This document shows, in pieces, positions 11,438-52,788 of a stretch of 64,000 nt of DNA. The position numbers and the translations under genes were made by a program. Every line of letters starts with the position of its first letter. Within the stretch, counting starts at the first letter, position 1. Under the pieces are notes generated by a model. The model was given only the letters and a program-made list of their open reading frames with translations. It had not been told where the DNA came from and did no database searches. The stretch lies in assembly GCA_029207755.1 (NCBI GenBank), contig JARCOQ010000017.1, positions 6,336,945-6,400,944 of the forward strand, in the 5' to 3' direction. The DNA comes from Chamaea fasciata (Eukaryota; Chordata; Aves; Passeriformes; Sylviidae).

Positions 11438-11533
11438 TCATCTTTTTCTCCATTTGTCCCCAGTCTTCTTGCCCTGTCCATGTGTGCTGGTGTTCCTGTG
11501 CTGCCACCTCAGCTGGTTCTCTAGTGCATTCAC
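11438..11533 (-). CDS. Peroxidasin-like exon 22: end of coiled coil and stop
   Basis: The acceptor CACCCCCAG joins in phase 0. The exon codes VNALENQLRWQHRNTSTHGQ, continues to DKWRKR and stops at TGA (11438-11440). PXDN and PXDNL have a similar stretch here ending W-basic-Lys-Asp/Glu followed by the first VWC cysteine. Just before the stop is an A5 run; one base fewer would read WRKD instead of WRKR-stop, but the frame beyond shows no VWC cysteine pattern either. Confidence 0.75.
   Translation of the reverse strand: MNALENQLRWQHRNTSTHGQGKKTGDKWRKR

Positions 11534-52788: not shown

What the first reader, a model, noticed from the sequence alone, without database searches (positions are those of the whole stretch)
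11438..52788. A peroxidasin gene at the SRMS-PCMTD2 locus, where the human 20q region has none
Seen: a full peroxidasin-family gene sits between SRMS and PCMTD2, all in the same direction. Known: human PXDNL adjoins PCMTD1 on 8q11, and SRMS and PCMTD2 are on 20q13.33, a block paralogous to 8q11 (PCMTD1/PCMTD2, ST18/MYT1, OPRK1/OPRL1, NPBWR1/NPBWR2). Inference: this is either a third vertebrate peroxidasin (the ohnolog partner of PXDNL, lost from the human block) or what bird annotations call PXDNL, in which case the bird and mammal genes may be hidden paralogs and not orthologs.
Basis: partly seen in the sequence, partly recalled or inferred. Interest (0 to 1): 0.75.

Follow-up and report, generated by a model that had tools for sequence, protein, structure and literature searches.

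The report
Third bird peroxidasin, mislabelled PXDNL
This bird gene is a third, ancient vertebrate peroxidasin (a matrix enzyme), also found in reptiles, echidna, coelacanth, rays and elephant shark, and it is not the human gene PXDNL although a chicken study uses that name for it.

Summary
Confirmed: an intact 22-exon peroxidasin gene (1406 aa, 52788 to 11438, minus strand) lies between SRMS-like and PCMTD2-like exons on the same strand; MYT1-type zinc fingers follow PCMTD2. Trees of database relatives give three gnathostome peroxidasin clades, each with chondrichthyans and tetrapods: PXDN, PXDNL, and a third holding this gene. Elephant shark has one protein in each. An AU test rejects grouping the bird gene with mammalian PXDNL (p = 5e-6). 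The bird genome shows two peroxidasin loci only, this one and PXDN. No bird or squamate PXDNL, and no therian member of the third clade, appeared in the (capped) hit lists, which suggests reciprocal loss. A chicken study calls the chr20 gene beside PCMTD2 'PXDNL', and the published family phylogeny speaks of two vertebrate branches. Catalytic residues are kept, so an active enzyme is predicted. Tetrapod members lack the VWC domain that coelacanth and ray members keep. Unsettled: rooting and so the 2R origin, the PCMTD1 locus of this bird (search tool unavailable), expression and function.

The parts
11438..52788 (-). third peroxidasin gene (clade A), 22 coding exons, 1406 aa
   Evidence: splice-checked model; Pfam; clade
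52625..52788 (-). exon 1: start codon, signal-peptide-like stretch, LRR N-terminal cysteines (aa 1-55)
31627..43360 (-). exons 2-6: five 72-base LRR exons (43360-43289, 36049-35978, 35734-35663, 33279-33208, 31698-31627)
   Evidence: Pfam LRR
29938..30107 (-). exon 7: LRR C-terminal cap
   Evidence: name by similarity to PXDN
20542..27903 (-). exons 8-14: four I-set Ig domains
17174..18991 (-). exons 15-16: linker to the peroxidase domain
13049..15894 (-). exons 17-19: haem peroxidase domain; Q811 at 15532, D814 at 15523, H815 at 15520, R965 at 15070, E968 at 15061, H1062 at 14779 (first base of each codon, minus strand)
   Evidence: aligned to myeloperoxidase
12183..12297 (-). exon 20: convertase-like site LSKR, its last R codon starting at 12244
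11438..11832 (-). exons 21-22: C-terminal tail, stop at the place where the VWC domain begins in PXDN
2..6288 (-). neighbour: SRMS-like kinase exons (part of the gene)
   Evidence: SH2 at 3562-3852 and kinase at 1570-1977; gene name recalled
59230..62440 (-). neighbour: PCMTD2-like exons (59230-59691, 62012-62440), gene runs on beyond the window
   Evidence: SOCS-box match; PCMT-type motif at C17:6402372; PCMTD2 rather than PCMTD1 by recalled sequence

Best explanation
The gene is a third gnathostome peroxidasin (called PXDN3 here). It parted from PXDN and PXDNL before cartilaginous and bony fishes split, most likely as the 2R ohnolog that stayed beside PCMTD2-MYT1 while PXDNL stayed beside PCMTD1 and PXDN beside TPO. 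Birds keep PXDN and PXDN3 and seem to have lost PXDNL; therians keep PXDN and PXDNL and seem to have lost PXDN3. It most likely works as a secreted, disulfide-linked haem peroxidase of the matrix: LRR and Ig domains hold it there, H2O2 oxidises the haem, and the hypohalous acid made oxidises nearby matrix protein, perhaps making collagen IV sulfilimine cross-links as PXDN does. Shown: gene, clade, copy number in this assembly, conserved catalytic and cysteine residues, VWC absent in tetrapod members. Inferred: 2R as the cause, the losses, activity, substrate.
For: Three clades with SH-aLRT 99-100 (64 rows) and bootstrap/SH-aLRT 100/100 on the branches that set off A, B and C (33 rows; C together with the lampreys 100/99); 163-row tree: A 24, B 49, C 88, 2 lamprey outside. 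Elephant shark in all three (P0053, P0023, P0160), coelacanth in two. AU tests. Two peroxidasin loci in the bird. PCMTD2 and MYT1-type neighbours. Q, D, H, R, E, H and both cysteines kept in 15 of 15 clade-A rows tabulated, out of 18 in the alignment; the distal, WFREHN and proximal motifs in 18 of 18.
Against: No near outgroup: with TPO and MPO-like exons of the bird as outgroup and the peroxidase domain alone, the root falls at an open fork and clade A is not recovered as one branch. The PCMTD1 locus was not read. No listed ray-finned fish, frog or therian in clade A, so several losses are needed (or the capped lists hide members). The coelacanth row is a long branch. No expression or activity data.
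Confidence: 0.88

Rival explanations
1. It is the bird ortholog of mammalian PXDNL, moved from PCMTD1 to PCMTD2 by rearrangement.
For: The chicken gene is labelled PXDNL; the bird has no other candidate; the published phylogeny puts birds in both of two vertebrate branches (PMC3533774).
Against: Holding two bird rows with three mammalian PXDNL rows costs 696 log-likelihood units, p-AU 5e-6. American alligator and turtles have a true PXDNL (P0130, P0138, P0162) while Chinese alligator, crocodile and another turtle have this gene. Elephant shark and coelacanth have both.
Confidence: 0.03
2. It is a third ancient peroxidasin, but from a duplication other than 2R (for example a tandem copy made before the gnathostome crown and later moved).
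For: The root of the three clades is not resolved, and gene order was seen in one genome and at this locus only.
Against: Its neighbours PCMTD2 and MYT1-type gene are paralogs of the PCMTD1 and ST18 neighbours of human PXDNL (human order recalled; PXDNL with PCMTD1 in one region, PMC7188851), as a block duplication predicts.
Confidence: 0.09
3. The protein is a catalytically idle matrix protein, as human PXDNL is reported to be.
For: Human PXDNL is inactive and not clipped (PMC8533639, passages); this species has lost the P4 arginine of the clip site (LSKR).
Against: The residues whose loss silences human PXDNL (Gln823, Asp826) are unchanged in 18 of 18 clade-A rows, and the domain aligns to myeloperoxidase over residues 3-500 of 502.
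Confidence: 0.1

Closest known systems
PXDN, peroxidasin (Pxd1; human 2p25)
   Same: Same LRR - four Ig - peroxidase plan, catalytic residues, two cysteines; 69% identical to macaque and tinamou PXDN
   Different: Separate clade; beside PCMTD2 and not beside a TPO-like gene; no VWC domain
PXDNL, peroxidasin-like (Pxd2; human 8q11)
   Same: Same domain plan; neighbour is a PCMTD gene in both; 61-71% identical
   Different: Separate clade, AU test; PCMTD2 and not PCMTD1; Gln823 and Asp826 kept, unlike anthropoid PXDNL; no VWC
Database 'peroxidasin homolog' of birds, crocodilians, squamates and echidna (for example P0001, P0004, P0006, P0011)
   Same: Orthologs: 97, 89, 86 and 83-85% identical
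   Different: The database names do not set them apart from PXDN or PXDNL

Membership tests
Peroxidasin family | animal haem peroxidase domain | tested here: met
   PF03098, 676 bits, positions 1-530 of 530
Peroxidasin family | leucine-rich repeats and Ig domains before the peroxidase domain | tested here: met
   LRR_8 three stretches, I-set four stretches
Peroxidasin family | C-terminal VWC domain (named as typical, not shown to be required, in PMC3533774) | tested here: not met
   No VWC in the window gene. Stingray, skate and coelacanth members of the same clade have it, so I read it as lost and file the gene as a peroxidasin by descent
Peroxidasin family | descent: falls among vertebrate peroxidasins | tested here: met
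PXDNL | nests in the PXDNL clade | tested here: not met
   AU test
PXDNL | lies beside PCMTD1 | tested here: not met
   beside a PCMTD2-like gene (PCMTD2 by recalled sequence)
PXDN | nests in the PXDN clade | tested here: not met
   the bird's PXDN is on C3
Active matrix peroxidase (works like PXDN) | catalytic and haem-linking residues | tested here: met
   Gln823 and Asp826 from PMC8533639, the other numbers recalled
Active matrix peroxidase (works like PXDN) | makes collagen IV sulfilimine cross-links | not testable with these tools
   needs a cell assay
2R ohnolog | paralogous neighbours around all copies and a rooted tree of the right age | tested here: inconclusive
   PCMTD2 and MYT1-type neighbours seen; MYT1L beside PXDN and the PCMTD1-ST18 locus of this bird not reached; rooting unresolved

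The most novel reading that the evidence does not exclude
The jawed-vertebrate ancestor had three active peroxidasins. Birds and reptiles still use two or three of them, therians lost one, and anthropoid primates then silenced a second (PXDNL), so people rely on PXDN alone for work once shared; in tetrapods the third enzyme also lost its VWC tail and so skips part of the clipping control known for PXDN.
Probability: 0.35. Interest if true: 0.65.

Novelty: new member of a known kind. Interest (0 to 1): 0.52.

Why it matters
The family paper and the reviews seen count two vertebrate peroxidasins (Pxd1/PXDN and Pxd2/PXDNL), and a chicken study carries the name PXDNL on a gene that is not PXDNL. 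Comparisons of 'PXDNL' between birds and mammals would compare different genes. A third, catalytically intact copy gives a natural contrast for what PXDN does alone in mammals and for what PXDNL was before it was silenced in anthropoids.

Tried and rejected
Simple orthology with PXDNL: rejected by trees and AU test. Rooting with the bird's own TPO-like and MPO-like exons: outgroup end branches of 0.8-3.3 changes per column, the root falls at an open fork, clade A not held together; I do not lean on it. A search of the window for a VWC exon with recalled PXDN found none, and the three frames after the stop show no VWC cysteine pattern. A PDB search with too strict a cut-off gave nothing and was repeated. 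Ten paper searches showed no paper naming a third vertebrate peroxidasin; the library lacks most subscription journals. PCMTD1, SNTG1, ST18 and MYT1L in this bird could not be reached: of 33 genome-search runs only searches were answered. No structure was predicted.

Full report
Observation. The window is G000:C17:6336945-6400944 of a 1.19 Gb genome. The peroxidasin it encodes is 97% identical to a sparrow protein, so I take it to be a songbird. I built the gene model from tBLASTn hits and splice sites: 22 coding exons on the minus strand, first codon at 52788, stop ending at 11438, GT-AG at all 21 introns, 1406 aa. Pfam gives LRRs, four I-set stretches and a complete An_peroxidase domain. Neighbouring exons match SH2 and, weakly, tyrosine kinase on one side, and a SOCS box in a PCMTD-type C-terminal exon on the other, all on the minus strand; the names SRMS and PCMTD2 rest on recalled sequences. 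In the 30 kb beyond the window a PCMT-type motif lies at C17:6402372 and MYT1-type C2HC zinc fingers at 6422475-6428154, both minus (pattern matches). So the order is SRMS - peroxidasin - PCMTD2 - MYT1.

Relatives. Three protein searches: window protein (599 hits, 120 listed), possum PXDNL (654 hits, 120 listed), American alligator PXDNL (492 hits, 120 listed). A 64-row tree of proteins that I chose gives three groups with SH-aLRT 99-100, each with chondrichthyans. A 33-row careful tree gives 100/100 (bootstrap/SH-aLRT) on the branches that set off A, B and C (drawn with a midpoint root inside B). A FastTree of 162 of the 166 proteins met plus the window gives A (this gene) 24 rows, B (PXDNL) 49, C (PXDN) 88, and 2 lamprey rows outside. 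The four proteins first met (P0163-P0166) were not in that tree. In some searches the lampreys join C.

Who has which, among listed hits. A: seven other birds (Melospiza, Calypte, Patagioenas, Lonchura, Catharus, Cyanoderma, Malurus), a crocodile and Chinese alligator, a box turtle, six squamates, echidna, two salamanders, coelacanth, a stingray, a skate, elephant shark. B: mammals, American alligator, turtles, coelacanth, gar, bowfin, sturgeon, bichir, sharks and rays, elephant shark; no bird, no squamate. A holds no therian, ray-finned fish or frog. Elephant shark has one protein in each clade. The lists are capped, so absences are suggestive only. The echidna A and C proteins are on contigs of different length (40 and 136 Mb).

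Tests. Holding two bird rows with three mammalian PXDNL rows costs 696 log-likelihood units (p-AU 5e-6); holding bony-vertebrate A and B together costs 137 (p-AU 4e-83). Against my reading: with the bird's TPO-like and MPO-like exons as outgroup and the peroxidase domain alone, the root falls at an open fork, and the chondrichthyan and tetrapod parts of A stand as two branches there. The outgroup is very distant, so I take the separation of this gene from PXDNL as firm, and branching order and 2R origin as inference.

Copies in this bird. PF03098 gave 36 matches, all 36 candidates scored: the window, a second peroxidasin on C3, a peroxidase gene about 116 kb from it that I take for TPO by its place, two MPO-like genes on C21, weaker ones on C10, C14 and C20. 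The C3 gene is PXDN: its exons are 82-100% identical to tinamou PXDN between C3:95587574 and 95511493. Alligator PXDNL against the genome (516 candidates, 32 scored) found peroxidase exons at the window, at PXDN and at the TPO-like gene only. So no third peroxidasin shows in this assembly. I could not find or read the PCMTD1 locus.

Literature. Soudi et al. 2012 (PMC3533774; sections 5, 10 and 15 read; [quoted passage not shown] the table has chicken, turkey, zebra finch and platypus Pxd02 entries and four from Anolis. I cannot tell where their bird Pxd02 proteins fell. A chicken study (PMC7240924, one passage) lists 'PXDNL,PCMTD2' at chr20 9.06-9.10 Mb of GRCg6a. A preprint (PMC11601313, two passages) shows a PXDNL alignment from Shultz and Sackton 2019, recalled to be a bird data set; which gene it is was not tested. 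In people PXDNL and PCMTD1 share a region (PMC7188851, passages), and hsPxd02 is at 8q11, hsPxd01 at 2p25. Two papers count six mammalian members of the superfamily, PXDN and PXDNL among them (PMC8533639 and PMC9138014, passages); echidna with this gene would not fit. Passages of PMC2315650 and PMC4420034 added nothing on this point. Ten searches named no third vertebrate peroxidasin.

How it likely works. PMC8533639 (passages) reports that PXDN cross-links collagen IV, is clipped at Arg1336 by a proprotein convertase, and that human PXDNL is inactive, with Trp and Glu in place of Gln823 and Asp826. Clade A keeps the motifs round these residues in 18 of 18 rows and the eight tabulated residues in 15 of 15 rows (positions other than 823, 826 and 1336 are recalled). 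The domain aligns to myeloperoxidase at 436 bits. I expect an active, secreted matrix peroxidase; collagen IV as substrate is the first guess.

Tail. PF00093 (VWC) is listed for 3 of the 23 clade-A database proteins (stingray, skate, coelacanth) and for none of the 19 tetrapod ones, some of which are fragments, nor for elephant shark P0053. Of the 14 tetrapod rows aligned, 10 end in a basic K/R-rich end just before the place of the VWC, the two salamanders a few residues later; pigeon P0003 and turtle P0012 have odd tails, as has elephant shark, which may be annotation faults. The convertase-like site is R-x-K/R-R in 10 of 10 other tetrapod rows tabulated and LSKR in this bird.

Verdict. Observation confirmed, interpretation supported in both halves. 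The family is known and the gene sits in databases as 'peroxidasin homolog'; the third clade and the bird misnaming were not found in print in the held library.

Noticed in passing
proteins of clade B (PXDNL): Loss of the catalytic Gln823/Asp826 pair is seen in 9 of 9 primate PXDNL rows (Pan, Gorilla, Pongo, two Macaca, Saimiri, Cebus; some are isoforms) and in 0 of 34 non-primate rows with letters there (6 more have gaps). So PXDNL looks silenced in anthropoids only, unlike the general statement about group Pxd2 in PMC3533774. No lemur or other prosimian PXDNL was in the set.
   Followed up: partly
window 12244-12255 (-), exon 20: Convertase-like site is LSKR here against RSKR or RGKR in three other birds (Melospiza, Calypte, Patagioenas).
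   Followed up: no
L039, G000:C17:6422475-6428154 (-): MYT1-type C2HC zinc fingers directly beyond PCMTD2, as in the paralogous human blocks with ST18 and MYT1L (recalled).
   Followed up: partly
lamprey proteins P0066 and P0088: Both lamprey peroxidasins join the PXDN side; their order is open, and P0066 has an odd letter make-up.
   Followed up: no
Talpa P0153, Erethizon P0154, Herpailurus P0151 (PXDNL): Single changes in otherwise conserved active-site motifs (distal His to Tyr; DHD to DHN and REHN to RIHN; proximal His to Arg): local decay or sequence faults.
   Followed up: no
window 59230-59691 (-): The PCMTD2-like C-terminal exon carries a SOCS-box match (24.6 bits, cut-off 23.5).
   Followed up: no
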